Below are positions 17,872 to 54,121 of a DNA stretch of 57,614 nt, piece after piece. Source of the DNA: a virus. Both the position numbers and the translations under genes were made by a program. Within the stretch, counting starts at the first letter, position 1; each line of letters opens with the position of its first letter. The stretch spans positions 1 to 57,614 of the IMG/VR virus record IMGVR_UViG_3300027833_000060; one strand, given 5' to 3'. The notes under the pieces were generated by a model that made no database searches, was not told the origin of the DNA, and saw only the letters and a list, made by a program, of their open reading frames with translations.

Positions 17872-17944
17872 CAATAATGAGTTTTACAAAACCACAGACT
17901 ATGCTAGTAAGTATTTATGTGTTAACGTGTAAACAGGAGTACTC
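17872..17944 (+). promoter_or_regulatory. Regulatory gap with palindromic operator before the GNAT gene
   Basis: The 73-base gap is long for this densely packed block. It holds a candidate -10 (TATGCT, 17900-17905) and a 16-bp palindrome TGTTAAC-GT-GTAAACA at 17920-17935, which abuts the ribosome site AGGAG (17936-17940) of the next gene. The -35 is uncertain. The palindrome is a member of the operator family repeated across the genome. Here it lies downstream of the likely transcription start and could also block transcription or translation of the next gene. Confidence 0.5.
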
Positions 17945-18373
17945 ATGCCAACGTCGCGTTTAATATTCGATGAAAGCGAACGTGTAGGGGCTTGGGTAGC
18001 CGAACAAGTAGAGCAACTCTCTTCGTGGGGTGGGTTCTACGCCATGGGCGCTGAGAAGGACGGTAAACTGGTGAGTGGAGTTGTGTTTAACAACTTTAAC
18101 GGCAGTAACGCCACCGCACACTTCGCAGTCAGCAAACCCAGCAAACTGTTTTTGGAGCTGCTCGACCATGCTTTTTTGTATGCGTTCGAGACACTAGGTC
18201 TGAGACGGCTTACTGGTTTAGTCGAATCTGATAACTCCAAAGCACTTAAATTAGATAAGCATATCGGCTTCGTGGAAGAGGCTGTTATGAAAAAAGGTGG
18301 GTCAGATGGGCAGGACATGATTGTCCTAGTTCTTTGGCCGGAGAACTACCGCAAAGGAAAAAACCATGGGTAA
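17945..18373 (+). CDS. GNAT-family N-acetyltransferase (142 aa)
   Basis: A compact GNAT-type layout: SRLIFDESERVGAWVAEQVE, central strands GKLVSGVVFNNFNG and TAHFAVS, then LGLRRLTGLVESDNSKALKLDKHIGFVEEAVM, which corresponds to the late GNAT core where a helix follows the acetyl-CoA-binding strand and ends in the GF.eE motif. The substrate is unknown; phage GNATs placed in virion blocks have been proposed to modify virion or host proteins. It has its own regulatory gap and operator upstream, unlike the rest of the late genes, and overlaps the next gene by eight bases. Confidence 0.7.
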   Translation: MPTSRLIFDESERVGAWVAEQVEQLSSWGGFYAMGAEKDGKLVSGVVFNNFNGSNATAHFAVSKPSKLFLELLDHAFLYAFETLGLRRLTGLVESDNSKALKLDKHIGFVEEAVMKKGGSDGQDMIVLVLWPENYRKGKNHG

Positions 18374-19391
18374 AAAGAGTAATCCACCGCCTCCCAACTA
18401 CCAACCCTTGGCCAACGCCAGTGCAGAAGCGGCGCGTATACAAGGTGAGTTGGGGCAGGCACAACTAGACTTCGCGAAAGAGCAGTACAACGACAACGCT
18501 CCGACGTTAAAAGCAATCGCGGACCAGCAGATGGCTGCTCAAACGCAGCAGATGACGCAGGCCAAAGACTACTACGACTATCAAGTCGAGACGTTCCGCC
18601 CACTGGAGCAAGGTCTTGTAGCTGACGCACAGAATTTCAACACCGATGCTTACCGTGACCAGATGGCTTCCAGAGCCGCTGCCGACTCCGGTAGAGCGTT
18701 CGGTATCTCACAACAACAAAACCAACGAGCTATGGCCTCTATGGGTGTTAATCCCAACTCGGGGCGGTTCGCTGGTATGAATGCTGCCACTGGCTTACAG
18801 CAAGCAGCCTCACGTGCTAACGCGATGACAGGTGCGAGAACCCAAGCAGAGCAAATGGGCTATGCCCGTAAGTTAGATGCCGCTGGTCTTGGCCGTGGTC
18901 TCGCAGGCGCATCCACTGCCGCTTATGGTGGAGCCAACAATGCCGGTAACTCCGCAGGTATGAACGCACAGTCCGCAGGTAATACTTACATGCAGGGTAT
19001 GGGAATGGGCGCAGGCACTATCGGTGCAGGCCAGAACATGCAGATACAGGGTTTGAGCAGCGTTCTAAACAACCAGACACAGACTTACATCAATACACAA
19101 GACAGCCTCCTTGGCGACATTGGTGGTTTGATGGGTGGCGCAGCCTCTATGTACACTGCCTTCGGGTCAGATCGCACAATCAAAGAGAATATTGTTGAGG
19201 TCGGTGTAGACCAACGCACAGCCTTAACTCTTTACGAGTTTAACTACATCGGCGGTGACGGACGTAGGTTCCGTGGCGTAATGGCGGATGAGGTAGAGCT
19301 AGTTTACCCAGAAGCAGTAGTAGACACGGACCAAGGCCACAAAGCGGTGCGCTACGATCTTCTCAACATAGAATTTAAGGAGGTCCACTAA
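18366..19391 (+). CDS. Virion protein with C-terminal S74 intramolecular chaperone domain (341 aa)
   Basis: The N-terminus (MGKKSNPPPPNYQPLANASAE) and an Ala/Gln/Gly-rich helical body (about residues 20-255) resemble internal virion or DNA-ejection proteins. Residues from about 268 form an S74 peptidase-type intramolecular chaperone: GSDRTIKENIVEVG, LYEFNY, RFRGVMADEVELVYPEAVV. S268-D269 fits the known autocleavage position (SDxRxK motif). S74 domains normally trimerise fibres and then cleave themselves off. Found on an Ala/Gln-rich body next to giant internal-type proteins, it may assemble an ejection protein instead. It overlaps the GNAT gene by eight bases and the next gene by one. Confidence 0.72.
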   Translation: MGKKSNPPPPNYQPLANASAEAARIQGELGQAQLDFAKEQYNDNAPTLKAIADQQMAAQTQQMTQAKDYYDYQVETFRPLEQGLVADAQNFNTDAYRDQMASRAAADSGRAFGISQQQNQRAMASMGVNPNSGRFAGMNAATGLQQAASRANAMTGARTQAEQMGYARKLDAAGLGRGLAGASTAAYGGANNAGNSAGMNAQSAGNTYMQGMGMGAGTIGAGQNMQIQGLSSVLNNQTQTYINTQDSLLGDIGGLMGGAASMYTAFGSDRTIKENIVEVGVDQRTALTLYEFNYIGGDGRRFRGVMADEVELVYPEAVVDTDQGHKAVRYDLLNIEFKEVH

Positions 19392-21022: not shown

Positions 21023-21023
21023 T

Positions 21024-24000: not shown

Positions 24001-27000
24001 AAGCCGCCAACCAAGGGGGACAAGATCAAAGCCGAACAGACGGCGCAACGCTTGACCAAGATGGCGGAGAAGTACAACAAACTAGGGCTGAACCTGAAGG
24101 TGCCGAACCAGAAGCCCAACAGCTAAGCGCTGCGGAGCAAACTGCACGTGCGGCTAAGGTGCCAGTCGTTACCAAGAAGAAGCGTCGCGTGGTTAAACCA
24201 CCGAAGAATCCAGAGGAAGCACCTGAGGCTAAGCGTCAAGGTAAAGACTCTGAGCTTAACGCCGTAGACGCCGTAGCCGAGAAGCTAGGGGGCGAAGTGG
24301 TTTACCAGAAGGGTGACGTTGCTCTCGTCCGTGGGTATAGCGCACAATCTGGCGCACCAGTGTATGCCGCAGCAAAGGGTTCTATGTTCACCAAGGTGGA
24401 CGTTGATAGCTACACAGGCACTGAGTTTACTCCTGAGCAAATAGCTGACCTTGTAGAAGCTAAGAAAGCAGCCGAAGCGGAGGCTCAGAAGGTTCACACA
24501 GAAACCCCGTTTGTTACCTTTAGTAACGGATTAGCATTCTCTGAGAGTATGACTCCTGAAATGCAGGGGGTTGTGCGAGAGTGGCAAAACCTTCTTGGGT
24601 TAGATACAGACGTTTACGTTACCACACTGGCAGATGCTAAAGCTAACAAGTTAAACTTCACTGGCCCTCAACGCGCCGTGGGGTCTGGCACTTTAGATAG
24701 TAATGAACGCGGCTCTACGCGCAAGCTATCTGACGGTAGCCATTATATTATCTACGACGACCAAGCCTCTAAGGTTGGTACGTTAGAAACCATCGCCCAC
24801 GAAATGGGCCACGTACACCAGAAGGTGGTTTTCGACCAAGCGTCTCCAGAGATGCAACAAGACCTACGAGCAGAACACCGCAAGTGGCTTGAATCTCAGA
24901 AAGGTTCTACAGCGGAAGACCTAGTTAAGTCGCTCCGTGCTAGGCAGACTGGGAAGACTACTGACGTTCCCGTCGACCTCCCAGCGGAGAAAGTTAGTGC
25001 TTACTGGAAGTCCTTCAACGAGTGGTACGCAGATCAAACCTCGCGTTGGGCAACGACGCAGACTGCGCCTCTAACAGCAGTTGAGAAGTTCTTCTCTCGC
25101 CTCGGTAAATCAATGAAGAGTTTCTACGATAAGTTGGCGAACAAGCAGTACCTGCCTTCTGACGCTTTCGTGGAGTACTTGGACAAAGTTAAAAACGCTA
25201 ACCTACGCGACCCAATCAACGACAACCCTGAGTTCCAGTCGGACGGCATGGCAGGCTCGATGAAGCCTACAACGGAAGCTCAGGAAAAGAATTCTAAGTT
25301 CGGCGAATGGGTGCGCGAAAACTTCGGTGGTACAGGCAAGCAGTTTGTGGACGACGTATCTGAAGTTGGTAAGCAGGGTGTAGCATCACTCAAGTTCCTC
25401 CACCAGTATGTGCGTGACGTTAAAGGACGGATGCCTGCCGCTGGTACTATGTACCAAGCAATAAAAGAAGCAGACAAAACGCGTCAAGATATTCGGCGTC
25501 AAGTGGAAGCCATCGCCGTACGCGCTCGTGAGCTAAAGCCTGAGCGGCTAACAGTAGTTAACGACTTTCTAAGTAAGTCTACGTTCTACCAGAAGTGGGG
25601 ATATGATCCCCAGTTTACTGACGCCGATGGAAACAAGCGCGTTATTAAAGAAGACCCTGTTATGGCGGCGGCGTACAAACGTCTAAGCCCAGTAGAGCAG
25701 GGGCTAGTACGAGAAATATTCCAGCATGGTGAGAACATGCGTTTGCGTAAGCAGGAAGTGGCTAAGCTCTTAGGAGTTGATAAGTCGTTCTTTAGTGCTG
25801 CCGCGCTTGAAGGGCCGTACGCACCGCTGAAACGTTTCGGTGACTACGCCGGTGTACTAAAGTCGCAAACCTTAATCGACGCAGAAGCAGAACTTGCGGA
25901 TACGCCAACGCCTGCCTTGCGTAAGAAAGTAGATGAACTGAAGTCTCAGCAACAGCACTACGTGGTTAGTTTCTTTGACACCATGGGTTCGGCTAAGAAG
26001 TTTACCGACGAGAACCGTGGCGACTATGCTACCGCAGTACCGTCGCAACGCACGGATGACTTAATGTCTGACCGCGTGACAAACGAAGAAGCGTTTCAGA
26101 CGATACTGGGTAGCCTGAAAGCAGCAGACAGTAACCTGATTGACCCGCAGTCCAAGAAGGCATTCGCGGATATGGTTCGCGATATGTACTTTGATTCCAT
26201 GGATGAACGTGACGCTCGTATGTCTGGGGCGAAGCGTAAGAACCGTGCTGGCTACGAGAAGAACATGGTTCGCTCGTTCTTGTCTCACGCTAGGGCCGAA
26301 GCCGGAATGATCTCCACGATGGAGCATGGCGCTGACATCAACTTAGCTTTGGCTGAAGCGATGAAGCAGTCTGACCAAGACCCAGAAGCTCTGAAGCCCG
26401 TGTACAACATGTTAGTGGCTCACTACAAAGACACGCTAACCTACCAAGACACAGCCTTCCAACGTGTCTCAGATCGCGTTGCTGCGCTCAACTCTGTTTA
26501 CATGTTGACATCTAGTGTCGGCTACCACGTAACTAACGCGACACAGCCTGCGATGGTTACAGTCCCTAGATTAGCAGGTGACTTTGGCGACTACTCCGGT
26601 GCTTGGAGTAAGCTCACTCGTGGTTACAAAGTAGCGGTTGGCTCCGCTAGAATGACTAAAAAGTTTGAGACGGAGATCGACCTTGAGAAAGCGCCTCCAC
26701 AGTACAGGGCGTTGCTACAAGAACTCCAGTTGCGCAACCTTCTGGACGTCGGCATGGAAGAAGATTTGTCGTCGTTTGACAGGTTCAACACAGGGTATGA
26801 AGCCCTTAACGTAGCGTCTGATAAGCTAGGCATGGTAACCCACAAACTGTACCAAGCGGCCCGTCTGGTGGAAGCTCATAACCGTATTTCATCGGCAGTA
26901 GCCGCATTCGATATGGCGTCAGCCAACCCACAGGTTGCTAAGAGACAGGGAATGACCCCTACCGAGTACGCCATTAGTGTAGTTGAAGACACTCAGGGTA

Positions 27001-28343: not shown

Positions 28344-29603
28344 ATGGCGTTAGTACAACAGGGAACAATTTATTACTTTGTGAAGCGAGTTCCTCGACGG
28401 TTCGCGGCTTACGACGTACGCAAGTTTGTTAAAGTTTGTTTGAAAACTGACAGTGAAAGCGAAGCGTTGCGCAAGGTGGCTGAGGTGGAGGACAACCTTG
28501 AACAGTACTGGGTAGCCCTGTCTGATGGGTCTGGTGATGAAGCCAAGTACGACGCTATGGTTAAGTTAGCCGCTGCCCGTGGCGTACGATATAGGCCAGA
28601 GAAGGAACTGATGAGTCGTGGGCTTGATGAAGTCCTGCGCCGTATCGAAGCCCTAGAACCTAACGAGGCCAAAGACCCAGTCATTAGTGGTGCTGTACTG
28701 GGAGTGGCCAAGCGACCGACGATAAAGCTGTCTGAGATAAATGAAATGGTCTTTGAGTTGGAGAAGACTAAACTGGTAGGGAAGTCAGCGGATCAGGTTC
28801 GCCGATACAAGAACCCAAAGCTAAAAGCCTTTAAGAACTTAGTTGGCATTTTGGGGGACGTGGATATTGCGAGTATCGAACGCGACGACGCGCTTGAGTT
28901 TAGAGACTGGTGGCAAGACAAGATTGTAGAGGAAGACCTTACTGCTAACTCTGCCAACAAAGATATAACGAATGTCTCGGCGGCGCTCCAGATGGTCATA
29001 GACCGTAAGCGGCTACCGATGGAAAACCCGTTTAAGGGACTGCGCTTTGAGCAGGGGAAAACTAAAGCTAGGCCGCCGTTCTCTGTCTCGTGGATCACAG
29101 AGATGTTTACTGAAGCCCGTGTGGCAGGTCCAGACGCTGAGGCTAGAGACATATTCTTAACTCTGGTTAACACAGGTTGTCGTCCCGCCGAAGTGGCAGG
29201 GTTACTACCAGAGGACATAATACTGGCAGACAATATACCCCACATTAAAATACGGGCTAACGCCAATAGACAGATAAAGAACAGCGCCTCTGAGCGTGAC
29301 TTACCACTTGTAGGCATATCACTAACTGCCATGCGAAGACACCCAGATGGGTTTCCACGGTACGCAGGGAAAGATAAATTTTCAGGAGTTATGAATAGGT
29401 ACTTGAGGGGGAATGGTCTTATGGAGACACAGGATCATACTATCTACGGGTTACGACATAGTTTTGAGGATCGACTGCTAAAGCTCAAAGAACCTGACAG
29501 GCTCTGTGCTGATCTCATGGGACACGCTACAGCGCGTGAGCGATACGGGTTAGGGGCGACTCTGGATCACAAACTTGAGGTACTGATCCGCCTCGCGCTT
29601 TGA
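28344..29603 (+). CDS. int: Tyrosine recombinase / phage integrase (419 aa)
   Basis: The N-terminus (ALVQQGTIYYFVKRVPRRFA) is the DUF6538-type arm-binding segment of proteobacterial integrases, which fixes the start despite no clear ribosome site. The core-binding domain covers about residues 120-230. The catalytic domain shows R280 in NTGCRPAEVAGL, R371 in YGLRHSF, H394 in MGHATARERYG and the nucleophile Y401. The usual first His of the HxLR box is Tyr (Y368), a change seen in some members, with H372 after the Arg. It should integrate the phage at a host attachment site and shows that the phage is or was temperate. It is the only plus-strand gene between the terminator and the early block, and its 3' end overlaps the opposing gene at 29527. 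Confidence 0.93.
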   Translation: MALVQQGTIYYFVKRVPRRFAAYDVRKFVKVCLKTDSESEALRKVAEVEDNLEQYWVALSDGSGDEAKYDAMVKLAAARGVRYRPEKELMSRGLDEVLRRIEALEPNEAKDPVISGAVLGVAKRPTIKLSEINEMVFELEKTKLVGKSADQVRRYKNPKLKAFKNLVGILGDVDIASIERDDALEFRDWWQDKIVEEDLTANSANKDITNVSAALQMVIDRKRLPMENPFKGLRFEQGKTKARPPFSVSWITEMFTEARVAGPDAEARDIFLTLVNTGCRPAEVAGLLPEDIILADNIPHIKIRANANRQIKNSASERDLPLVGISLTAMRRHPDGFPRYAGKDKFSGVMNRYLRGNGLMETQDHTIYGLRHSFEDRLLKLKEPDRLCADLMGHATARERYGLGATLDHKLEVLIRLAL

Positions 29604-29904: not shown

Positions 29905-30057
29905 TCAGCTTTCAATTTTGTTCTCCAGCATTTCCAGAAGGTATCCTATCTCTTCTGACTGTTGTTTCAGGCTGTGCTCACCGCGTTGCTCAGCGTTCTT
30001 GGTCATGCCGTCGACACGGTGCTTCAGCGTTTTTACTATTTGTTCTACTTCTGTCAT
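29905..30057 (-). CDS. Small coiled-coil protein (50 aa)
   Basis: ATG at 30057 lies four bases after the stop of the primase gene. The sequence (MTEVEQIVKTLKHRVDGMTK ... EEIGYLLEMLENKIES) is one long amphipathic helix and should form a coiled coil. It fits the gap between primase and the next gene with no other frame open. Function unknown. Confidence 0.5.
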   Translation of the reverse strand: MTEVEQIVKTLKHRVDGMTKNAEQRGEHSLKQQSEEIGYLLEMLENKIES

Positions 30058-30061
30058 GCTC

Positions 30062-33021: not shown

Positions 33022-33037
33022 TGTTGACGGGTTAACA
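33022..33037. promoter_or_regulatory. Operator palindrome TGTTGAC-GG-GTTAACA upstream of the primase gene
   Basis: Perfect member of the dispersed 16-bp operator family. It lies between the hairpin that follows the SSB-like gene and the start of the primase-helicase gene. No convincing minus-strand promoter overlaps it, so here it could act as a roadblock to read-through rather than by blocking initiation. Confidence 0.6.
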
Positions 33038-33041
33038 GATA

Positions 33042-34041: not shown

Positions 34042-34443
34042 TTATTTGCGACGGAAGTTAACGACCTGCGTTTCCGACCAGTTAATGCCGGGGGGTAGAT
34101 CGCCCTCGACGGTTTTAAACTGCTCAACCGCAGTCTTGTTTACACGCCGTTCCAACATCTCCCATGCGTCATTGGATCGTATGTGCTCTAGTATAGCGTC
34201 CCAGTCTGCCACCGTGGCAGATGAACGTGTAGTCCTGTAAGCAGTTCCAACGTCACGGGCAGATACATTGTCTATCCCTCTGTCTTGGAATCGCCGCAGA
34301 AACTCTACCTCAATCTTGTTTTGTTTACCTTTGTCTCCCGCGTCGTCTTCATCGTACAAAGCCTTACGCTCCGCACGTCGATCACGTAGAGCGATGAATA
34401 GTTTCAAACATGAAACGTCATCCAACTCTGAGATTTTCGCCAT
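34042..34443 (-). CDS. Conserved phage early protein (133 aa)
   Basis: Begins MAKISELDDVSCLKLFIALRDRRAERK and continues with FLRRFQDRGIDNVSARDVGTAYR and an end segment EGDLPPGINWSETQVVNFRRK. The TAYRTTR...VADWD and LPPGINW phrases occur in conserved proteins of podovirus early regions. A helical, charged protein located next to the SSB-like gene, it may be a replication or recombination accessory. It starts inside the 3' end of the AlpA-like gene. No catalytic residues are recognisable. Confidence 0.5.
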   Translation of the reverse strand: MAKISELDDVSCLKLFIALRDRRAERKALYDEDDAGDKGKQNKIEVEFLRRFQDRGIDNVSARDVGTAYRTTRSSATVADWDAILEHIRSNDAWEMLERRVNKTAVEQFKTVEGDLPPGINWSETQVVNFRRK

Positions 34444-34621
34444 TGTTGTTCTCCTTTTTAGCAGTTAGCCAGTTGTCAATATCCTCTTCGTCCCACCGCA
34501 AGACTTTCTGCGAAACCTTTATTGGTTGGGGGAAGCTCGTCTCTCTTCGTCGCAACGCTGGGAGCGCTGCTTTGGTAATGCCCAGTTTTTCAGATACCTC
34601 TTCAGGTCTAAGCAAGTTCAT
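34418..34621 (-). CDS. AlpA/excisionase-type helix-turn-helix regulator (67 aa)
   Basis: ATG 34621 is chosen; GAGG lies seven bases upstream, and the longer frame has no support and would overlap the promoter. The product is a MerR/AlpA-like winged helix: MNLLRPEEVSEKLGITKAAL, RRRETSFPQPIKVSQKVLRWDEEDIDNWL. Such proteins act as transcription regulators or as excisionases that direct integrase. It is the first gene behind the promoter at 34654-34682, which carries two operator sites, so it may be both regulated by and part of the lysis-lysogeny circuit. Confidence 0.75.
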   Translation of the reverse strand: MNLLRPEEVSEKLGITKAALPALRRRETSFPQPIKVSQKVLRWDEEDIDNWLTAKKENNNGENLRVG

Positions 34622-34638: not shown

Positions 34639-34684
34639 TGTTTACTTGTAAACAGATTAGTCCATATACGTTCACCTGTCAAGC
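34639..34684 (-). promoter_or_regulatory. Minus-strand promoter with two operator palindromes before the AlpA-like gene
   Basis: On the minus strand the -35 TTGACA (34682-34677) is followed after 17 bases by TAATCT (34659-34654). A perfect-arm palindrome TGTTTAC-TT-GTAAACA (34639-34654) covers the end of the -10 and the start site. A weaker copy CGTTCAC-CT-GTCAAGC (34669-34684) covers the -35. The TGA stop of the upstream helicase gene lies inside the -35 hexamer. Confidence 0.75.
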
Positions 34685-36883: not shown

Positions 36884-37163
36884 GTATGGCCTCCTTCATT
36901 TGTTCAACGTCGTCGACAACAAGTGCTAACCCGTAAGCACGTTGTATGTCAGTAATTTCCCGTTCCTGATTAGCAGTCACGTTCTTTATCTTGCCCGGAG
37001 CCTTCGTCTCAAAAGCCATGAACAAACCCTTGTGGCACACCAGTATATCAGGGCAACCTACACGCCCCATGCCATTGGATACGGGCATGTAGTACCAAGC
37101 CCCTATCGCTTGTAGGTGTTCTTTACACTTCTTCTTAACTTTACCTTCTGGGGTCATACCCAT
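36849..37163 (-). CDS. VRR-NUC domain nuclease (104 aa)
   Basis: A stand-alone VRR-NUC (PF08774-like) protein: TPEGKVKKKCKEHLQAIGAWYY, GRVGCPDILVCHKGLFMAFETKAPG and LTANQEREI-like segment near residues 60-70. The PD and ExK residues (GCPDIL ... FETK) are the catalytic PD-(D/E)xK set. Phage members cut Holliday junctions or branched DNA. The ATG shares one base with the preceding stop (TAATG). With the neighbouring HNH and Cas4/RecB-like genes it forms a compact nuclease group. Confidence 0.82.
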   Translation of the reverse strand: MGMTPEGKVKKKCKEHLQAIGAWYYMPVSNGMGRVGCPDILVCHKGLFMAFETKAPGKIKNVTANQEREITDIQRAYGLALVVDDVEQMKEAIHDKVIEAGIKD

Positions 37164-37377: not shown

Positions 37378-38043
37378 TTAAACACCGCAAAACTCACATA
37401 GTTTACGGCCCACTGGGCACCAGTTCTTACATAAGCCCGAGGGCTTTGGCGTCCACTTATCTTCGGTATGTGCTATTGCTAAGCGTTTTAATCTAGGCAT
37501 AAACTCATTCCATATCTCCGGAAGCTGCTCACGCGTGAACACCTCCTTGTCAAACTCACCAGACTTTAACCAGATGAACCCTGTCGTCACTTTATCTATC
37601 CACGGGTATATAGCAAAAGCCAGTGCCGCGAATAACATCAACTGGTCTGTGTCAGGCTTACGTTTGCCTGTCTTCCAATCAAGGAGGTATGCACGATCAG
37701 AGCCAACTACGCCTATGTCAATAATTCCTCTCACCCAGACATCTTTTGCCATCCAAGTGGTCGGACGAAAGCTGCGATCAAGGGCAATACGTTCCTCAAT
37801 AACGCGCCTACCTTCATAAGATAGTATCTTCTTAACGTACCTTTCGTACTTCTTGAGGTTAGCAGGTAGTGGCTTACCGTCGCGAGCGAACAGTTCCAAC
37901 GCCTTGTGTACCTCGTTACCCCAGAGTGTGGCTTCTGTCTGGGGTTCTTTTACCTGCCTTGTCACCCTTGTTAACTCGAACCGACGAGGGCAGGTTTCAA
38001 ACGCGGTAAGAGCCGAATAGCTCCACGCTTTTTTTAATTCCAC
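37378..38043 (-). CDS. PD-(D/E)XK exonuclease, Cas4/RecB-like (221 aa)
   Basis: GTG start with AAAGGAG upstream. The motifs of Cas4/RecB nucleases are present: SYSALTAFETCPRRFEL (first Cys), GNEVHKALELF (His), VRGIIDIGVV (Asp), LLDWKTGKRKPDTDQLMLF (DWKTG and QL), and a C-terminal cluster CKNWCPVGRKLCEFC. The four cysteines could hold an Fe-S cluster. It probably resects DNA ends in phage recombination or replication. It overlaps the preceding gene by ten bases. Confidence 0.85.
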   Translation of the reverse strand: MELKKAWSYSALTAFETCPRRFELTRVTRQVKEPQTEATLWGNEVHKALELFARDGKPLPANLKKYERYVKKILSYEGRRVIEERIALDRSFRPTTWMAKDVWVRGIIDIGVVGSDRAYLLDWKTGKRKPDTDQLMLFAALAFAIYPWIDKVTTGFIWLKSGEFDKEVFTREQLPEIWNEFMPRLKRLAIAHTEDKWTPKPSGLCKNWCPVGRKLCEFCGV

Positions 38044-38609
38044 GGTGGTAGTTCTCCTTTGTATATCTCTGTGTCTATTATATCCCAGAATTCTAGTAGC
38101 AGTTCGGTTCGTAGCTCTGTCTCCAGATGCTTTTGTTTTAACCTAGTGCGCTGTATTTCTAGGAACGCCAGACGCCGTTGCGCCCATTTGTGTTCAAGTT
38201 CGGCCATCCATTGCAGTCGCTTTGTGTAAGGTATTTCACCGTACAGTTCTTCTGCTTTGGCAGTGGCTCTCGCTATTCGTTCGCGCCGTGCAGTTTGGAC
38301 GTAGCGTCCGTTAATACGGCGGTATATAGCTTGAACCTCCGTGTATTGGAGACTCCTCCTGTCAAAATTATCTCGTATCTCTACGAGGTACTGCGTAAAT
38401 CCTTCCAGATTATGGCTGTATGCTTCTATCAGTGGCTTCAAAAACTCATGCGCCTTCGGTAGTAAGAAGACCTCTGGGTTACTTGCGTAACTTGTCATGT
38501 GTTTGTCTGTTATTATTAACCAATCGTTTACTTTATCTGGATTTCTTAGCAGTGTTTCAGTGACACTGGATACCGGACTCTCGTCAAAGTTATCAACCTT
38601 GATGCCCAT
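38034..38609 (-). CDS. Hypothetical helical early protein (191 aa)
   Basis: ATG 38609 (MGIKVDNFDESPVSSVTETLL) is preferred to an upstream frame. The protein is helical and charged with a basic centre (VQTARRERIARATAKAEELYG) and an end rich in Glu, Leu and Arg. It is placed between DNA polymerase and the Cas4-like nuclease, with which it overlaps by ten bases. No family is recognised. A role in DNA metabolism follows from context only. Confidence 0.5.
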   Translation of the reverse strand: MGIKVDNFDESPVSSVTETLLRNPDKVNDWLIITDKHMTSYASNPEVFLLPKAHEFLKPLIEAYSHNLEGFTQYLVEIRDNFDRRSLQYTEVQAIYRRINGRYVQTARRERIARATAKAEELYGEIPYTKRLQWMAELEHKWAQRRLAFLEIQRTRLKQKHLETELRTELLLEFWDIIDTEIYKGELPPWN

Positions 38610-38818
38610 AGTAATACTCTCATTCCCCCGCAGGTATAAATCTTGGCGCACTGTATCGCGCCTAGCGTTAAATTCAATTTGTTATTGTTCCCGTTGTATA
38701 CGGCTGTCGGTGGGCCGACAGGGGGGTTTATCCAATTGCAGAGGAGGCTCCACCCGTCCACGGCGTGGCTGACTAGGCGGTACATAGACTTAACTTTTAA
38801 TAATAGTGATTCTCTCAT
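38546..38818 (-). CDS. Possible small protein with strong ribosome site and structured coding region (90 aa)
   Basis: The ATG at 38818 follows AAGGAGATATAA, one of the best ribosome sites of the early block. The first 50 residues (MRESLLLKVKSMYRLVSHAV, then NWINPPVGPPTAVYNG) look protein-like but the end overlaps the next gene by 64 bases and appears poor. The DNA contains a perfect 7-bp hairpin CTGTCGG-CCCA-CCGACAG and other short inverted repeats. It could be a leader ORF, a structured RNA, or a gene with a frameshift. Confidence 0.35.
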   Translation of the reverse strand: MRESLLLKVKSMYRLVSHAVDGWSLLCNWINPPVGPPTAVYNGNNNKLNLTLGAIQCAKIYTCGGMRVLLWASRLITLTRVRYPVSLKHC

Positions 38819-38852: not shown

Positions 38853-38899
38853 ACATAGAACGACACCATCTGTACACATTTTTACAGATTCGAAAAGTC

Positions 38900-42581: not shown

Positions 42582-43730
42582 TTACTCCTCAAATTTAATT
42601 ACGTGACCCCAATCAAAGGCTTCGGTGCCGATGGTTAGCCACACAGTTTCATGGTTGGTTGTGAATTGAGACTGATCGCCGTAGCCATCTGTCAGGTAGA
42701 CAACGCACTCAGGATCAATTGCGTTGGTATCAATCCAGTCGAACACTGGTTTGAATGATGTACCGCCACCGCCGACTGATCGGATAGTAACGGGGAAGTC
42801 CTCAGGTGTGTACTCGTCAACACCTGCTACTTGGGAGTCGCAGTAGACAACATGCACAACCTCAGGGTTACACGTGTCGATGATGCGGTTGATGTGACCG
42901 TTGAACATAGCTATCTCGTCGTCACCGATGGAGCAGGACGTATCGACACCGATAACAATTGGACCCATCTTGGGGACGTAGTCGACTCCAGGAATATATA
43001 TGTTACGAGCGATGAACCTACGATTAGGTCTGTTCCATGAGTAACCGTCTTTGATCTTACCGGCCATGAACCGCTCAAGAATATCGTACCAAGGAGTCTT
43101 CACGTTAACTAACTCGTCGATCAGTCGTTCTATCCCAGCTGGTAGCTTACCGACGGCCTTCGCCGCTTTAGCAGATTGGATGGCGTCGATCTTAGCCTCA
43201 GCCTCAAGTTGGTGGATAGTTGCGTCGTCGAGTGGCTGCCCGCTATCATCGACGGGGTCACCGATGTCGTTGCCGATCCCGCCTGCTCCTTCACCGCCGC
43301 CGTCGTCGTTCTCGTCGTACAAAGACTCAGCGGCCATGTCACGTGCACCATCTAATGTGATGCCGCCGTCAATAAAGTCGCCTACCTTTGCGTCGATCAG
43401 CGTGTCGTTGATGACTTTGTCAGCGGCTACGTTCCACGCTTTGGGGTCACGATGTCCACGGCGTAGGCCATGCGATAGCATGTAGTGCATAGCCTCGTGT
43501 GCCAATAAGAACATAAGCTGTCGAACAGTTAGTGGTTCACAGAAGTCTACGTTCAGGTACATCTGCCCAGTGGCAGACATAGCGGCAGTAGGCACCGTAT
43601 CGGTGTAGATAATGGGGCGCTTGGTACATGCAGTACCAAAGAACGGATGATCTAAGATCAGTAGTGCTTTTGCCTTACCTACCTTGCGTTGCACTTCATC
43701 GAGTGCAGTGTGCTGTAGTTGAGCGTTCAT
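42582..43730 (-). CDS. DUF2201-type metallopeptidase with VWA-like domain (382 aa)
   Basis: The N-terminal half is a zinc-peptidase-like domain with HEAMH at residues 78-82 (FLLAHEAMHYMLSHGLR). An acidic Gly-rich linker (about residues 138-165) leads to the C-terminal VWA-like domain, whose MIDAS motif is D263-T-S-C-S267 (GVDTSCSIGDDE), followed by VVYLTDGYGD. This is the DUF2201 arrangement. Such proteins pair with MoxR-type AAA+ ATPases, one of which is encoded upstream in the same operon. By family knowledge the pair remodels or activates protein complexes, often with metal insertion. The phage target is unknown. Confidence 0.85.
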   Translation of the reverse strand: MNAQLQHTALDEVQRKVGKAKALLILDHPFFGTACTKRPIIYTDTVPTAAMSATGQMYLNVDFCEPLTVRQLMFLLAHEAMHYMLSHGLRRGHRDPKAWNVAADKVINDTLIDAKVGDFIDGGITLDGARDMAAESLYDENDDGGGEGAGGIGNDIGDPVDDSGQPLDDATIHQLEAEAKIDAIQSAKAAKAVGKLPAGIERLIDELVNVKTPWYDILERFMAGKIKDGYSWNRPNRRFIARNIYIPGVDYVPKMGPIVIGVDTSCSIGDDEIAMFNGHINRIIDTCNPEVVHVVYCDSQVAGVDEYTPEDFPVTIRSVGGGGTSFKPVFDWIDTNAIDPECVVYLTDGYGDQSQFTTNHETVWLTIGTEAFDWGHVIKFEE

Positions 43731-43734: not shown

Positions 43735-43893
43735 TTACTCCAGTTCAGTGGTGTTTAAGACGATGGCGCTGTAGCCGCCAAGAAGAGACAAGGCTTCCTT
43801 GATACCCTCGTCGGCGGCTTCGGCTTCGGTGTACGCCTCGACAATCACAGTGCGTGATGCGATAACTTCGACTTGGACTTCGTAGTTAGGCAT
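43735..43893 (-). CDS. Small DpnD/PcfM-like protein (52 aa)
   Basis: ATG at 43893 shares a base with the stop of the upstream gene (TGATG). The sequence MPNYEVQVEVIASRTVIVEA followed by YTEAEAADEGIKEAL has the strand-strand-helix shape of small DpnD/PcfM-type proteins. The reading frame fills the gap between two coupled genes exactly. The function is unknown. Confidence 0.6.
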   Translation of the reverse strand: MPNYEVQVEVIASRTVIVEAYTEAEAADEGIKEALSLLGGYSAIVLNTTELE

Positions 43894-45065
43894 CAGACTA
43901 GACCCTGCATCTTGCTCATCAGGTCGTCGATTTGAGTGGCGGCTTTTTCACGTACCGATGGCACGTTGCGGAGCATGTCCTTGTTGTTGGCGTATGTACC
44001 AACGAGTGACTGCAAGTCTTTGATACGCTCGGCAATCACAGGGTCGTCGGACACGTTGACCTTGGCCATACGAGATGCAACGTCCACCATGTTGTCGATC
44101 ATGGAGTCACGGAATACGCTACCGTCTTCGCCGATCTTGACTGTCAACTTACCGACAGCGCGGCGCATTGGTTCGATCATCTCATTAAGGACATGTGCAC
44201 TTGCGTTAGCACAAGCGTCGTCGAGTTGCTTCTGGACCGTCGCCTTGTCCTCGTCACTGATACCTAAGCGTGGGTCAAACCCATCAGCTGTAGGCACAGG
44301 CATATAACGTACCTCGACGCTAAACTTGGCACGCATCTCATCAGCATCAGGATAGTCAGCAGGGTTGGCTAGGTTCGGCTTACCCTTGGCGTAGGCTATG
44401 TCAGCTAAACGTTTTAGGTCAGCGGCTACCTCAGCATCCCAGTTGTGATACAAGTCGTCGACGGCGTCGTCAGCGCTTTGGATGAGATCACGCAGACCAG
44501 TTGTGAAGTCCATGTAGTTGCCGATGTTGAGCAGTTCCACACCAGTAGTCCACGGTACAGTATTGTCTTTGCTGTACGTGTAGACCTCGGTGTACTTGCT
44601 GATTGCTTCCTTGACGCGGTTGTTGCGGCCTTCGAACAGATGCTTGTTAACATTGCCTGCGCCGTATGCTCTAGTCTCCTCGGTGTCGAGCTTGTACGGT
44701 GAGTACATACGACGCTTGACCTGCACCAGCACAGCCTTTTCGTCTAGGTTCTTGACCTTGACAGTCTCTCTAACTGGCTCAGGAGTTAACACGTTAACAG
44801 GTGCGTCGTCGATGTTACCGGGGACCGGGGTCAGGTCGACGTCGGCGGTTACGTCATCGTCTAGGTAATTATACTTAGGCTCCGATGACGTTAACTGCGC
44901 CGAACACGGTGCGGCAGATGATGAGTCGTGCGTCGGCGACACTGTGTCGATAACTTGGACAGCTGAGTCAGTCTCGACGTCAGCGACAGCATCCACCCAT
45001 TCAGGTGTTACAGGTGTTGATTGCGCGGCAAGCATGGCGGCGCGGAGTTGTTCGTGCATAGTCAT
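43893..45065 (-). CDS. DUF3150-like protein of the MoxR-VWA operon (390 aa)
   Basis: The first 115 residues are low-complexity and acidic. From about residue 118 a conserved-looking domain starts: AVLVQVKRRMYSPYKLDTEE, VNKHLFEGRNNRVKEAIS, VPWTTGVELLNIGNYMDF. Long helices follow to the C-terminus. This resembles DUF3150 proteins, which occur in phages beside MoxR-type ATPase and VWA genes. A palindromic operator-like sequence (44784-44799) lies inside the coding region. It may be the substrate-binding subunit of the MoxR-VWA machine; this is inference. Confidence 0.6.
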   Translation of the reverse strand: MTMHEQLRAAMLAAQSTPVTPEWVDAVADVETDSAVQVIDTVSPTHDSSSAAPCSAQLTSSEPKYNYLDDDVTADVDLTPVPGNIDDAPVNVLTPEPVRETVKVKNLDEKAVLVQVKRRMYSPYKLDTEETRAYGAGNVNKHLFEGRNNRVKEAISKYTEVYTYSKDNTVPWTTGVELLNIGNYMDFTTGLRDLIQSADDAVDDLYHNWDAEVAADLKRLADIAYAKGKPNLANPADYPDADEMRAKFSVEVRYMPVPTADGFDPRLGISDEDKATVQKQLDDACANASAHVLNEMIEPMRRAVGKLTVKIGEDGSVFRDSMIDNMVDVASRMAKVNVSDDPVIAERIKDLQSLVGTYANNKDMLRNVPSVREKAATQIDDLMSKMQGLV

Positions 45066-45235
45066 TTGGATTCCTCCTCGTGAATTGAAATCATTGTTGG
45101 GTGGTTGTCATACAGGTAGACAATAAACGGTGTTTGACCGTGTTCACCCTTGACGGCATAACCCGTACACGGGCCATGGTCGCAGTCTTCGTTACGCTCG
45201 GCGACAGCGTCGTAATAGCCTTCATGTATTCGCAT
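45062..45235 (-). CDS. Small acidic protein within the MoxR-VWA operon (57 aa)
   Basis: ATG at 45235 overlaps the MoxR stop (TAATG) and its TGA overlaps the next ATG (ATGA). The product MRIHEGYYDAVAERNEDCDH continues with PCTGYAVKGEHGQTPFIVYL and an acidic end. The exact coupling on both sides makes it very likely a translated gene. Cys and His residues (CDHGPC) could bind a metal. No family is recognised. Confidence 0.6.
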   Translation of the reverse strand: MRIHEGYYDAVAERNEDCDHGPCTGYAVKGEHGQTPFIVYLYDNHPTMISIHEEESK

Positions 45236-46248
45236 TAGTTCCCTCCCATGAAAATGTCTTTGTTCTTGATAGCCCAGTCGATGAAGTCCTTGGTCTGTTG
45301 CAACTGCGGCGATAACCTCAGCGCGTCAGTGACGTACACCATCTGGAATTCTTTCGGTAACCTAGCCATGTAAGTCATGTCTCGCCCGAAACTATCAGGC
45401 GTCGCAGTCATAGACAGCGCAGTCGACACGGCATACTTAACCGCAGGTTCTTGTGGCACCTCAGTATCAGCAGGGTGCAGACGTATGACGTCGATGCTAG
45501 GCATCTTGTTCATCATGTCACGGGCGGCTACCCATTCGGCGGCGGCACCCTCACCAACTTTACCCTCGGCAGCGGTCAGATACATGTTAGTGGGTAAGTC
45601 GTTAGGCACTTCTGTAAACAACTTAGTCCACGAGCGTTGCGTTGGATTGCTACGTCGGTTGGGGTCGTAGTCGTTGAGCAGGTTGGGACGTAAGCGGAGG
45701 AACGCAATACCCATAGCATCGACGCCATTGTTCATAGCCCACTCGCACCAATCATCTAGCGAAGTCTCGACATCGAAGTGATACATACGGTCGTTAAGAT
45801 GGCCCAACAACGGCTTAGCACCTGCACGGTCTTCCGCACGGTTACCGGTGGCGATCATCACGACGTCATCGTCTACCGTAAATACAGGCGTCGCACGCTC
45901 TAACACGAAACCTGCTGACCATGTCTGCAACTGTTGGTTAGACTGTGCAAGTTCCTCAAGCACGATCATCCCTGCACCTGTGCCTTGACGAAAGTCATAG
46001 AACATCTTGGTCGGGTTAAACACGGTCATACCGTCGGTCACACTGGGCACACCAGTGAAGTCGACAACGTCGTGGTTGTTGATGTGAACGATAAGCACTC
46101 GGTCACGGGGGATGCCTAACTCATCAGCGATTTGCAGACATGCGTCGCTCTTACCCATTCCGGGCGCACCGTGCATCATCGGTACTGCCTTGGGTGACTT
46201 ACGGTAGATCGCAGAGACTGTGCTCTTGCATTCATTTATACTAGCCAT
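45235..46248 (-). CDS. MoxR-type AAA+ ATPase (337 aa)
   Basis: Walker A HGAPGMGKSDA is at residues 27-34, a central segment with FTGVPSVTDG follows, and Walker B MIVLEELAQSNQQ is near 95. ATGNRAEDRAGA (sensor 1) and a MoxR-like C-terminal helical domain complete it. The family drives conformational changes in partner proteins together with VWA-domain proteins, here the gene at 42582. It is the first gene of a seven-gene coupled minus-strand operon, behind a promoter with tandem operators at 46294-46324. AGGAGT precedes the ATG. MoxR-VWA pairs are uncommon in phages and no phage target is established. Confidence 0.88.
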   Translation of the reverse strand: MASINECKSTVSAIYRKSPKAVPMMHGAPGMGKSDACLQIADELGIPRDRVLIVHINNHDVVDFTGVPSVTDGMTVFNPTKMFYDFRQGTGAGMIVLEELAQSNQQLQTWSAGFVLERATPVFTVDDDVVMIATGNRAEDRAGAKPLLGHLNDRMYHFDVETSLDDWCEWAMNNGVDAMGIAFLRLRPNLLNDYDPNRRSNPTQRSWTKLFTEVPNDLPTNMYLTAAEGKVGEGAAAEWVAARDMMNKMPSIDVIRLHPADTEVPQEPAVKYAVSTALSMTATPDSFGRDMTYMARLPKEFQMVYVTDALRLSPQLQQTKDFIDWAIKNKDIFMGGN

Positions 46249-46293: not shown

Positions 46294-46324
46294 TGATTAC
46301 ATGTAAACACATAACGAGTCAACA
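46294..46324 (-). promoter_or_regulatory. Promoter of the MoxR-VWA operon with tandem operator palindromes
   Basis: Minus-strand -35 TTGACT (46322-46317) and -10 TAATCA (46299-46294), 17 bases apart. One operator TGATTAC-AT-GTAAACA (46294-46309) covers the -10; a second, weaker one ACATAAC-GA-GTCAACA (46309-46324) covers the -35. The -35 includes the TGA stop of the upstream gene. Early expression under phage-repressor control is suggested. Confidence 0.7.
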
Positions 46325-46981: not shown

Positions 46982-47125
46982 TTAGATGCAGGCATTGTAC
47001 CGACGGCACAGTTCATCTGCATAGTTGCGGTAGCGGATACGATCTTCGACAGAACGTCCGCTGCGGATGTGAACGACAGCCCACATGTCACCTCGACGGC
47101 GCACTTCATACAATTCAGAGAACAT
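46982..47125 (-). CDS. Small basic protein (47 aa)
   Basis: ATG at 47125 shares a base with the preceding stop (TAATG). The product MFSELYEVRRRGDMWAVVHI continues with RSGRSVEDRIRYRNYADELC and ends RRYNACI. It is basic with two late cysteines. The frame fills the gap between two genes. Function unknown. Confidence 0.55.
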   Translation of the reverse strand: MFSELYEVRRRGDMWAVVHIRSGRSVEDRIRYRNYADELCRRYNACI

Positions 47126-47388
47126 TACTTGTCCCCTGTGCTGAGGTCGGCGCGGTAATCATCGTAGATGTTGAATGGTGTAATGCACTCGCCCTGTACG
47201 TAGCCGCCGACGGAATCAGTGGGGAAACGCTCGCCACAACCAGAGAGCCAGTTGAGGATGATGAAGGCAAAGAACAGACCGAACACCGATGCGAACACAA
47301 TGCTACCGAGCCAATCAATGGCGCGACGGGTATTACTTCGACTAACTGCGCGGTTGATGCGACGTTGGTGTGATGAAACATAAGACAT
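47125..47388 (-). CDS. Small membrane protein (87 aa)
   Basis: ATG 47388 is chosen since AAGGAG lies eight bases upstream. A basic N-terminus (SSHQRRINRAVSRSNTRRA) is followed by one transmembrane helix (SIVFASVFGLFFAFIILNWL) and a polar C-terminal part with two cysteines (SGCGERF, GECITPF). It should sit in the inner membrane with the C-terminus outside (positive-inside rule). It is the first gene behind the iteron region and the operator at 47408, so it is probably expressed early. Function unknown. Confidence 0.6.
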   Translation of the reverse strand: MSYVSSHQRRINRAVSRSNTRRAIDWLGSIVFASVFGLFFAFIILNWLSGCGERFPTDSVGGYVQGECITPFNIYDDYRADLSTGDK

Positions 47389-47407
47389 ACAAAGCACTCC
47401 TTATAAG

Positions 47408-47456
47408 TGGTGACATGTAAACAGATTAGTAGACAAAGATGTAAATAGACAAGGGT
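47408..47456 (-). promoter_or_regulatory. Promoter and operator before the 87-aa membrane protein
   Basis: Minus strand -10 TAATCT, immediately followed by the palindrome TGGTGAC-AT-GTAAACA (47408-47423 on the plus strand). A possible -35 TTGTCT lies 18 bases upstream. The TAATCTGTTTACA junction is identical to that at the AlpA promoter (34654-34659 and 34648-34654), showing the same promoter-operator design. Confidence 0.55.
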
Positions 47457-47722
47457 ATTTAGACAGCGTCTAGCGCGTAAGCCCTTGGTACATATGTATT
47501 TAGACAATAAGACAAAGTTTGAGAACAAAGTTGAGTGACGCCAATGGAGGGCGCGATTTTCACTTCAACACATCAGAGTTATACAATCTTGATGTTATTA
47601 TTTATTCTTGTCTTATTGTCTTATTGTCTAAATAGATATAATAATAATAATAAAAACATACACTTAGGTGGCTTGGGTATTTAGACAAACGACTAGACAA
47701 AGCATTTCGTGTCTAAATACCC
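47427..47722. repeat. Iteron cluster with AT-rich segment, candidate replication origin
   Basis: The motif TATTTAGACA occurs at 47456-47465, 47497-47506 and 47678-47687, and its reverse complement at 47625-47634 and 47710-47719. Six more AGACAA/TTGTCT half-copies lie in between (about 11 in under 300 bases). Two copies are extended to GGGTATTTAGACA and form a perfect 13-bp inverted repeat (47675-47687, 47710-47722). An AT-rich stretch with several ATAATA units separates the copies. Clustered iterons plus an AT-rich segment are typical of replication origins. Confidence 0.6.
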
Positions 47723-47734
47723 TTGCGCAGTGGA

Positions 47735-48841: not shown

Positions 48842-48870
48842 TTGACTTGTATGTGTTCACGCGTTAGCAT
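48842..48870 (+). promoter_or_regulatory. Promoter of the packaging/head operon with internal operator
   Basis: -35 TTGACT (48842-48847), 17-base spacer, -10 TAGCAT (48865-48870). The palindrome TGTTCAC-GC-GTTAGCA (48854-48869) covers spacer and -10. The predicted start site is only about two bases before the ATG at 48879, where no ribosome site is seen, so the transcript may be leaderless. Confidence 0.65.
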
Positions 48871-48878: not shown

Positions 48879-49229
48879 ATGAGCAAACAACTGTACAAAG
48901 CAATAGACCCTACACAGGTCGATAAACCGATCTTGTCCCCTGCGGATATGCTGGCGATTGAAGAAGACCCGTCCAAAATGGAGACGGTAGCTCGAATGCT
49001 GGGCGCAGTTAACCTAGATAACTTGTTCCGCCATATGCAGAACCCCACAATAAACCCCATGGCCCGGATTGAGTTCCAAAAAATGCTGAATAAGCTCGGC
49101 AAACTGGAACCGGATACCAAAGCGGACAACATCGGTGGTGGACCACAGGTCATAATCAACATCACCCGCGCTAAGGACCGAGACGAAGCCATTACTATCG
49201 AAGGTCAGGCGCTCGACGATGCTACATGA
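48879..49229 (+). CDS. Terminase small subunit candidate (116 aa)
   Basis: The only gene between the promoter and terminase large subunit, overlapping the latter by 11 bases, which is the position of small terminases. The protein has an N-terminal segment YKAIDPTQVDKPILSPADML, a helical middle with MARIEFQKMLNKLGKL, and a C-terminal GGPQVIINITRAKD strand. The helical middle and the final strand match the oligomerisation and terminase-contact layout of small subunits, but no HTH is clear. It should recognise phage DNA for packaging. Confidence 0.6.
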   Translation: MSKQLYKAIDPTQVDKPILSPADMLAIEEDPSKMETVARMLGAVNLDNLFRHMQNPTINPMARIEFQKMLNKLGKLEPDTKADNIGGGPQVIINITRAKDRDEAITIEGQALDDAT

Positions 49230-50636: not shown

Positions 50637-50667
50637 TGTTGACCTGTTAACAGATAGACGCTATTGT
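50637..50667 (+). promoter_or_regulatory. Promoter with operator before the portal gene
   Basis: -35 TTGACC (50639-50644), 17-base spacer, -10 TATTGT (50662-50667). The palindrome TGTTGAC-CT-GTTAACA (50637-50652) overlaps the -35. It lies immediately after the terminase stop. Confidence 0.6.
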
Positions 50668-52750: not shown

Positions 52751-52781
52751 TGTTGACACGTTAACACATATGATATACTTT
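52751..52781 (+). promoter_or_regulatory. Promoter with operator before the 82-aa gene
   Basis: -35 TTGACA (52753-52758) inside the palindrome TGTTGAC-AC-GTTAACA (52751-52766). The -10 is TATACT (52774-52779, preceded by TG as an extended -10, 15-base spacer) or TACTTT at a 17-base spacer. The predicted start lies within a few bases of the ATG at 52788, so the mRNA may lack a leader. Confidence 0.6.
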
Positions 52782-52787: not shown

Positions 52788-53036
52788 ATGATTGACTTAA
52801 ACAATGTAGATAAACAAGCCGTTACAGCCCTGACTAGGCTGAGAGAACCCGGCAATGACGCATTATTTAGGTTACTGGAGGCCGAATTAGAAACCTCCAA
52901 GCAGAAGCTAGTACACGCAATCGACATGGTCCAAGTCCACCGATTGCAAGGACGAGCGGAAGCATTTGAAGATTTACTGAACGCCGTCATAGACGCGCCG
53001 AAGGTAGAAAAACGCGCTTATGCGCAAAATACGTGA
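52788..53036 (+). CDS. Hypothetical protein between portal and scaffold (82 aa)
   Basis: The product MIDLNNVDKQAVTALTRLRE continues with a helical ALFRLLEAELETSKQKLVHA and QGRAEAFEDLLNAV. It looks like a compact helical protein. Small genes at this position occur in marine phages between portal and scaffold. The function is unknown; a head-assembly role follows from position. The ATG lies right behind the promoter without a recognisable ribosome site. Confidence 0.6.
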   Translation: MIDLNNVDKQAVTALTRLREPGNDALFRLLEAELETSKQKLVHAIDMVQVHRLQGRAEAFEDLLNAVIDAPKVEKRAYAQNT

Positions 53037-53106: not shown

Positions 53107-54102
53107 ATGGCATTGCCAAGACAGGTGCAAGCTCAGCTTGCTGAAGTGGAAGAACTAGAGAAAACGCTAAACGCCCAAACGGAAGCACCAAAGAAAAAGA
53201 AGGCAAAAGAGCCTAAAGTTTCAGAGGTAACACCCGAGGATACCGAGGCAGAAGTACCAGTAGAAGCTGAAGCAGCAGTAGAACCTGAAGAAGCGAAGCC
53301 AGCTGACACGTCACCGACGGACGTAGCGGACGAATTTGAGCAGAAGTACAAAACCCTACGCGGGAAGTACGATGCTGAAGTCCCTCGCTTGCACTCGCAA
53401 GTTAAGGACTTAACGGCTAAACTGAACAACCTCTCTGAGAGTTTGGCAGCGAAGCCCAAAGAGCCGACGAAGCCGAAGGAGAAAGTCAGTTATGTGACCG
53501 ATGAAGATCGAGCCGAATTTGGTGAAGAACTGATAGGCGTTCAGCGTCGTGTTGCGCAGGAAGTGTCTCAAGAATATGAGGGACGTTTTGAGCAGCAAAG
53601 CGCGATTATCGAACAGCTTCAAAAACAACTGAAGCAGACTGGTAATCAGGTTGGAGAGATGAGTTTTTCTCAGAAACTGTCCCAGATAGTTCCTGATTTT
53701 GCTAGTATCGACAATGATGAACGTTGGGTAGAGTGGTTAAACGAGTATGATCCCATGCTTCGTGGCCCTCGCCGAGATCAGGCGGCACAGGCGTTTAATA
53801 CTGGAGACGCTGAAGCAGTAGCACATTACGTGAAACTGTGGAAAGAATCTCTAGGGCCAGATGTGCCACAAGAGCGTCAGACTCGCCAAGCCGAACTCGA
53901 GAAACAGGTTGCGCCTAATCGTTCAGCGAATTCCGCGACAACGAAGAGTGTAGGAAAAGACGCTAAATTTTACTCTGAAAGAGAAATTGCAGCTGCTTGG
54001 AACAAAATACGCACTTTGAATACGCGGCATAAGTACGATGAAGCCACAAAACTTGAAGCAGATATAACAACTGCGTATCTTGAAGGCCGTGTACGAGCGT
54101 AA
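53107..54102 (+). CDS. Scaffolding protein (331 aa)
   Basis: AAGGAGAGAAAC precedes the ATG. The protein is hydrophilic and helical: an N-terminal coiled coil (QVQAQLAEVEELEKTLNAQT), a low-complexity acidic and Ala/Pro/Glu-rich stretch (about residues 40-75), further coiled coil (KTLRGKYDAEVPRLHSQVKD) and a mixed C-terminal third. This composition and its place immediately before the capsid gene are those of internal scaffolding proteins that guide prohead assembly and leave the shell. No protease motif is present. Confidence 0.78.
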   Translation: MALPRQVQAQLAEVEELEKTLNAQTEAPKKKKAKEPKVSEVTPEDTEAEVPVEAEAAVEPEEAKPADTSPTDVADEFEQKYKTLRGKYDAEVPRLHSQVKDLTAKLNNLSESLAAKPKEPTKPKEKVSYVTDEDRAEFGEELIGVQRRVAQEVSQEYEGRFEQQSAIIEQLQKQLKQTGNQVGEMSFSQKLSQIVPDFASIDNDERWVEWLNEYDPMLRGPRRDQAAQAFNTGDAEAVAHYVKLWKESLGPDVPQERQTRQAELEKQVAPNRSANSATTKSVGKDAKFYSEREIAAAWNKIRTLNTRHKYDEATKLEADITTAYLEGRVRA

Positions 54103-54105
54103 ACG

Positions 54106-54121
54106 TGTTAACAAGTAAGCA
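54106..54121. promoter_or_regulatory. Operator palindrome TGTTAAC-AA-GTAAGCA before the capsid gene
   Basis: Thirteen of fourteen arm positions fit the dispersed palindrome. It lies between the scaffold stop and the capsid ribosome site. No convincing promoter overlaps it, so it may act on read-through transcription. Confidence 0.55.

What the first reader, a model, noticed from the sequence alone, without database searches (positions are those of the whole stretch)
17920..54121. One 16-bp palindromic operator repeated across the genome at unit boundaries
The pattern TGTTnAC-NN-GTnAACA (two-base centre) appears intergenically at 17920, 33022, 34639, 46294, 47408, 48854, 50637, 52751 and 54106, with weaker second copies at 34669 and 46309 next to strong ones, and at 38837. 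In several cases it covers the -35 (TTGAC forms the left arm) or the -10. Both strands and both early and late blocks are involved. That is the layout of a genome-wide phage repressor, like the stoperators of some mycobacteriophages. No repressor gene is apparent.
Basis: partly seen in the sequence, partly recalled or inferred. Interest (0 to 1): 0.88.

Follow-up and report, generated by a model that had tools for sequence, protein, structure and literature searches.

The report
Genome-wide phage operator with orphan repressor
A marine phage carries the same DNA switch at most of its transcription units, and the relatives rich in these switches also carry an integrase and one orphan protein, so that protein is probably the master repressor that keeps the phage dormant, of a kind not described before.

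Summary
The repeated palindrome is real and conserved. All nine main sites match a matrix trained only on other genomes (23-31 bits), which finds 17 sites at >=16 bits against 0.09 expected. The site is about 22 bp (ATsTGTTnACRYGTnAACAsAT). Two of the three weak sites fail; the third (38837) belongs to the promoter of a candidate regulator. Operators lie over -35, spacer, -10 or start region of units on both strands, and inside genes: the exonuclease-gene site (37526) is kept in 33 of 33 distinct sequences even where amino acids change.

I propose ORF 38034-38606(-), 190 aa, all-helical, without Pfam, PHROG or PDB relative or fold match. In an integrase-defined screen it is the only gene family in 14/14 integrase-positive and 0/12 negative genomes. 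Orphan and operator rise and fall together, with at least four changes on the polymerase tree. A decayed prophage in a Rhodobacterales MAG keeps this gene and the integrase intact. The AlpA-like protein is not the likely reader: its HTH is unchanged in relatives without the operator.

DNA binding by the orphan is inferred. It works like stoperator immunity but fits no known repressor family that I could test.

The parts
17920..17935 (.). operator core (27.4 bits), 9 nt before the start of 17945-18373(+)
33022..33037 (.). operator core (25.1 bits), 14 nt before the primase start (33007, - strand), just after a terminator-like stem
34639..34654 (.). operator core (27.8 bits) over the start region of the AlpA-operon promoter (TTGACA-17-TAATCT, then the operator)
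   Evidence: an operator (<=2 mismatches) lies upstream of AlpA in all motif-positive relatives read
46294..46309 (.). operator core (24.5 bits) in spacer and -10 of TTGACT-17-TAATCA, upstream of 45235-46248(-)
47408..47423 (.). operator core (24.5 bits), upstream of the small membrane-protein ORF 47125-47397(-)
48854..48869 (.). operator core (26.2 bits) in spacer and -10 of TTGACT-17-TAGCAT before 48879-49229(+), upstream of the terminase large subunit
50637..50652 (.). operator core (26.4 bits) over the -35 of TTGACC-17-TATTGT before the portal gene
52751..52766 (.). operator core (30.7 bits) over the -35 TTGACA before 52788-53036(+)
54106..54121 (.). operator core (23.4 bits) before the major capsid gene
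37526..37541 (.). intragenic operator in the exonuclease gene (25.3 bits), kept in 33/33 distinct sequences of orphan-positive relatives
44784..44799 (.). intragenic operator (24.7 bits) in 43893-45065
36924..36939 (.). intragenic operator (21.8 bits) near the 3' end of 36849-37163(-)
26495..26510 (.). intragenic operator (19.2 bits) in the large tail gene
42807..42822 (.). intragenic operator (18.7 bits) in the HNH gene, shared by some close relatives only
38034..38606 (-). candidate repressor: orphan all-helical 190-aa protein with invariant RRxNGRxVQQxRRER segment
38837..38852 (.). half-altered operator in the promoter of the candidate repressor (6.1 bits), conserved as TATATACATGTAAACA in most relatives
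38871..38886 (.). second degenerate operator (12.3 bits), overlapping the -35 region of the same promoter
38546..38818 (-). short fast-changing ORF between that promoter and the candidate repressor (absent in some relatives)
28344..29603 (+). tyrosine integrase
   Evidence: PHROG integrase 5e-29; 72% identical in G001
34418..34621 (-). AlpA-like HTH protein: gene under the operator, probably not its reader

Best explanation
The palindrome ATsTGTTnACRYGTnAACAsAT is the operator of a lysogeny (immunity) system of temperate podoviruses, at least some of which infect marine Alphaproteobacteria. In the prophage, a phage-encoded repressor, probably bound as a dimer, shuts most lytic units at once by covering -35, -10 or the start site; at sites inside genes it blocks elongating polymerase. 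The repressor is most likely the orphan protein 38034-38606(-), made from its own promoter, which carries two degenerate operators and so would be self-limited. Lineages that lost integrase and repressor became strictly lytic and then lost the sites. Shown: the sites, their conservation, their position next to start codons and promoter-like elements, selection inside genes, and co-occurrence with integrase and orphan. Inferred: that the orphan binds this DNA, that it is a dimer, that it represses, and the roadblock action.
For: Sites far above chance and conserved in relatives. Positions not used to find the sites are themselves conserved: A at -3 in 86%, central RY in 86%. The operator falls at different places relative to -35/-10, as for a steric repressor and not an activator or sigma element. 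Exonuclease-gene site: 33/33 distinct orphan-positive sequences within 2 mismatches (mean 1.0), with amino-acid changes E to K balanced by codon changes that rebuild the palindrome (GTGTTCACGCGTGAGCA vs AAGTTTACACGTAAACA); mean 3.9 mismatches in 14 orphan-negative sequences. Integrase in 15/15 orphan-positive and 0/12 orphan-negative contigs that cover the locus (a few are near-duplicates). Non-circular screen, genomes sorted by integrase alone: the orphan is the only family at 14/14 and 0/12. Polymerase tree: at least 4 changes of the orphan; 27 taxa have both orphan and sites (>=1 per 10 kb), 15 neither, 3 sites only, 0 orphan only. 55 loci fetched through the orphan alone (some on contigs already seen): 208 sites against 1 in the control, none without a site. 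Prophage remnant in a Flavimaricola MAG: tRNA-Val, intact integrase, broken primase, intact orphan with its promoter site and RBS, host genes on both sides, replication genes missing. Arg-rich invariant segment in a long helix.
Against: No binding or expression data. The orphan has no recognisable DNA-binding domain and no fold match, so DNA binding rests on conserved arginines and on co-occurrence. Contigs are mostly fragments, related genomes are not independent, and co-occurrence cannot separate the repressor from another lysogeny protein. Some orphan-negative, integrase-negative lineages keep sites (G003/G017, G023 and kin), including an exact site before AlpA in G006 and L123; I read these as losses of the repressor with decaying sites, but another reader of the site is possible there. 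G036 and G039 have the orphan but few sites (1.1-1.4 per 10 kb).
Confidence: 0.68

Rival explanations
1. The operator is read by the AlpA-like protein (34418-34621), with or without the orphan as partner.
For: It has an HTH (Pfam AlpA 4e-8), and the operator lies directly upstream of its gene in every motif-positive genome read.
Against: It is universal: relatives without any site keep an almost identical HTH (L141 against the window), while relatives with the same operator have much diverged AlpA proteins (L140, L130). It was not found in the Flavimaricola remnant that keeps the orphan.
Confidence: 0.08
2. The regulator is another phage protein or protein pair; the orphan is a different lysogeny-module protein (antirepressor, co-repressor, integration accessory).
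For: The orphan lacks a known DNA-binding fold; orphan-negative lineages with residual sites exist.
Against: No other family shows the same distribution; the next, 37163-37390, reaches 11/14 and is a small acidic protein. The window is nearly complete: gene order in relatives suggests that only about 1 kb inside one gene is missing.
Confidence: 0.14
3. The site belongs to a host regulator that the phage exploits.
For: The host of the window is unknown.
Against: The only host genome with a full-length orphan (Flavimaricola MAG, 4 Mb) has 2 matches against 2 in the control. Site loss follows loss of phage integrase and orphan, and the same operator occurs in phages from 46 to 55% G+C.
Confidence: 0.05
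4. The palindrome is only a promoter element shared by the phage units, without a repressor.
For: In some sites TTGAC of the left arm is the -35.
Against: Other sites lie over the spacer, -10 or start region, or inside genes; relatives have promoter-like sequences at the same places without the palindrome (L048, L079).
Confidence: 0.03

Closest known systems
Cluster A mycobacteriophage immunity system (L5 gp71, TipsytheTRex repressor; operators and stoperators)
   Same: Many copies of one site across the genome, in promoters and short intergenic spaces; integrase-bearing temperate phages; a lytic derivative (D29, PMC5712189) of a temperate parent; repressor of similar length (L5 183 aa)
   Different: There the site is an asymmetric 13-mer read by a monomer with an HTH and a second DNA-binding domain (PMC9283540); here a 22-bp palindrome and an orphan protein without a recognisable HTH
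Streptomyces phage phiC31 repressor and its conserved inverted repeats (from memory; no open paper found)
   Same: Palindromic operators of about this size, many copies, mostly intergenic
   Different: Actinobacterial siphovirus with a longer repressor; the orphan was not compared with it directly
HMO-2011-type podoviruses (HMO-2011, CRP-3, HTVC033P)
   Same: Related structural genes (portal 25-27%); some carry a tyrosine integrase upstream of the replication module, and CRP-3 integrates (PMC9038755)
   Different: CRP-3 (50 of 53 kb read) has neither the motif nor the orphan; no repressor is mentioned in that paper
Rhizobium phage RHph_TM3_14A
   Same: Closest isolate by portal (37%) and polymerase (33%); attachment sites and an integrase annotated; also has one palindrome repeated across the genome
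   Different: Its palindrome is GTTACC-N6-GGTAAC (15 exact copies); orphan absent from the 50 kb tested

Membership tests
Cluster A stoperator system | many copies of one operator across the genome, in promoters and between or inside genes | tested here: met
   17 sites >=16 bits vs 0.09 expected; intragenic excess
Cluster A stoperator system | asymmetric 13-bp site oriented with transcription | tested here: not met
   site is a 22-bp palindrome
Cluster A stoperator system | repressor with N-terminal HTH | tested here: not met
   candidate has no Pfam, PHROG or PDB sequence match and no Foldseek match
Temperate phage immunity repressor (general) | gene travels with the integrase | tested here: met
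   15/15 vs 0/12 contigs; 14/14 vs 0/12 in an integrase-defined screen
Temperate phage immunity repressor (general) | own promoter with operator (autoregulation) | tested here: inconclusive
   degenerate operators 38837 and 38871 upstream, the former conserved in most relatives; effect on expression not tested
Temperate phage immunity repressor (general) | kept in defective prophages | tested here: inconclusive
   intact in one Flavimaricola remnant; a second genome, G371, holds only a truncated piece
Temperate phage immunity repressor (general) | binds the operator and represses lytic promoters | not testable with these tools
   needs EMSA and reporters
AlpA-like regulators as reader of the site | reader and site change together | tested here: not met
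   HTH unchanged when the site is lost, diverged when the site is kept
phiC31-type conserved inverted repeats | homologous repressor | not tested
   no direct comparison made; tblastn of the orphan against 50,697 phage records found nothing

The most novel reading that the evidence does not exclude
The orphan is the founding member of a new, non-HTH, all-helical class of sequence-specific DNA-binding phage repressors that silences a whole prophage from about 15-20 palindromic operators, used by a large uncultured group of marine temperate podoviruses. Related lineages have become lytic several times by losing it together with the integrase.
Probability: 0.5. Interest if true: 0.82.

Novelty: new variant of a known kind. 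Interest (0 to 1): 0.72.

Why it matters
Integrases are known in marine podoviruses of the HMO-2011 kind, but I found no account of how lysogeny is kept there. This gives a concrete operator, a candidate repressor with no known relatives, and a sequence test (orphan plus site density) for telling temperate from lytic members in metagenomes. It also gives natural replicates of the temperate-to-lytic switch. If the orphan binds DNA, it would be a new repressor fold.

Tried and rejected
AlpA-like protein as reader: rejected by comparison across relatives. TM-anchored HTH protein 40831-41196: present with and without the motif. 37163-37390 as regulator: second-best distribution, but missing in several orphan-positive genomes and acidic. 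The first screen for co-occurring genes was circular (groups set by the orphan itself) and was repeated with groups set by integrase. Prophages by portal in genome contigs: none. Orphan in 50,697 phage records: none. Orphan in 397 and 385 genomes of the host family and class: the Flavimaricola MAG plus one truncated fossil. Literature on phiC31 inverted repeats: no open paper found. Weak sites 34669 and 46309: not supported. Promoter consensus scan of the early region: no excess over shuffles, so promoter assignments there are by eye.

Full report
OBSERVATION. The window is a 57.6-kb IMG/VR virus record of a podovirus-like phage with DNA polymerase, portal, major capsid and tyrosine integrase genes. 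Exact matches: 5 against 0 in shuffles; at most one mismatch: 13 against 0.2. A matrix from 219 sites of other genomes, none of them present in the window, finds 17 places at 16 bits or more against 0.09 expected. It scores the nine reader sites from 23 to 31 bits, and rejects 34669 and 46309. Alignment of 305 distinct sites shows that the element reaches three bases further on each side: A at -3 in 86%, central RY in 86%, positions that played no part in the search. So the operator is about 22 bp.

WHERE THE SITES LIE. Nine are intergenic, 9 to 48 nt before a start codon, on both strands and in early and late blocks. In 50637 and 52751 the left arm holds the -35; in 46294 and 48854 the site fills the spacer and -10; in 34639 it follows the -10. 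These promoter assignments are by eye and consensus; the scan does not find more promoters than chance in the early region. Such a varied position fits steric repression. Sites inside genes exceed a synonymous-codon shuffle in the window (4 against 0.58, 0 of 400) and in other orphan-positive genomes, and in G003, but not in G005, G018, G006 or G002. The exonuclease-gene site is the clearest: kept in 33 of 33 distinct orphan-positive sequences, with amino-acid changes that preserve the palindrome. This is selection on DNA, and the best sign of a stoperator-like use.

WHO READS IT. AlpA was the natural suspect, but its HTH stays the same where the sites are gone and changes where they remain. 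Gene-content comparison pointed to ORF 38034-38606(-), between exonuclease and polymerase. A profile search finds it in all strongly motif-positive genomes with that region and in none of the others. With genomes sorted only by integrase, it is the single family at 14/14 and 0/12. Integrases of several dissimilar groups sit at one locus between tail gene and primase in orphan-positive genomes. In the polymerase tree the orphan changes state at least four times; 27 taxa have both orphan and sites, 15 neither, 3 sites only. A search seeded by the orphan alone brought 55 more loci, some on contigs already seen; each carries sites (208 against 1).

THE PROTEIN. 190 aa, predicted with high confidence (pLDDT 91.9, pTM 0.77) as seven helices, one of 37 residues holding an invariant Arg-rich segment. 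No Pfam, PHROG, PDB-sequence, PDB-fold or viral-fold relative of note, and no tblastn match in 50,697 phage records. Its own promoter bears a half-altered operator (38837; conserved in most relatives) and a second degenerate one (38871), as expected of an autoregulated repressor.

A LYSOGEN. In a Flavimaricola MAG (Rhodobacterales) a contig has TIM, TGT and Lon genes on one side and transporter genes on the other. Between them lie tRNA-Val, an intact tyrosine integrase, a broken primase, fragments of other phage genes, and an intact orphan with its promoter site and ribosome-binding site; polymerase and exonuclease were not found. The MAG as a whole shows no excess of the site. A second genome keeps only a truncated piece of the gene.

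MECHANISM. Most likely the orphan, as a dimer, holds the prophage silent at once from all operators, and at genic sites stops transcription that leaks through. Losing integrase and orphan yields lytic lineages whose sites decay; G003 and G017 look like an early stage, comparable to mycobacteriophage D29 (PMC5712189). DNA binding and repression are inferred.

COMPARISON. It works like the stoperator system (PMC9283540) and, from memory, the phiC31 inverted repeats, but the site is symmetric and the candidate protein has no recognisable HTH, so I do not file it in either. HMO-2011-type phages with integrases are described without mention of a repressor (PMC9038755), and CRP-3 lacks both motif and orphan. 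The Rhizobium phage RHph_TM3_14A has a different genome-wide palindrome, so such arrays may be common in this wider group.

Noticed in passing
L273 (MN988472), 5843 to 45675: Rhizobium phage RHph_TM3_14A has GTTACC-N6-GGTAAC 15 times, between and inside genes: a second, different operator-like array with unknown reader.
   Followed up: partly
38546-38818 (-) and the same place in relatives: Short fast-changing ORF (often W..PP.APP...GTP) between the orphan's promoter and the orphan; absent in some genomes, apparently fused to the orphan's start in the fossil of G371.
   Followed up: partly
47430-47725: Non-coding, A+T-rich stretch with many direct and inverted copies of TATTTAGACA / TGTCTTATTGTC; candidate replication origin or second operator set.
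   Followed up: no
28344-29603 and the same locus in relatives: Integrases of several dissimilar groups occupy the same locus between tail gene and primase: an integrase swap site.
   Followed up: partly
29905-30069 (-): 54-aa ORF next to the integrase, family found in 9 of 14 integrase-positive and 0 of 12 negative genomes; possible excisionase or accessory.
   Followed up: no
window ends (57138-57614 and 1-504): Gene order in relatives suggests the record is circularly permuted, with about 1.1 kb missing inside gene 57138.
   Followed up: partly
G002, G003, G006: Small proteins that look like sigma-factor region 4 by eye near the polymerase in genomes without the orphan.
   Followed up: no
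33040-33065: Terminator-like stem (AACGGGAGTTCGCTCCCGTT) directly before the operator at the primase gene.
   Followed up: no
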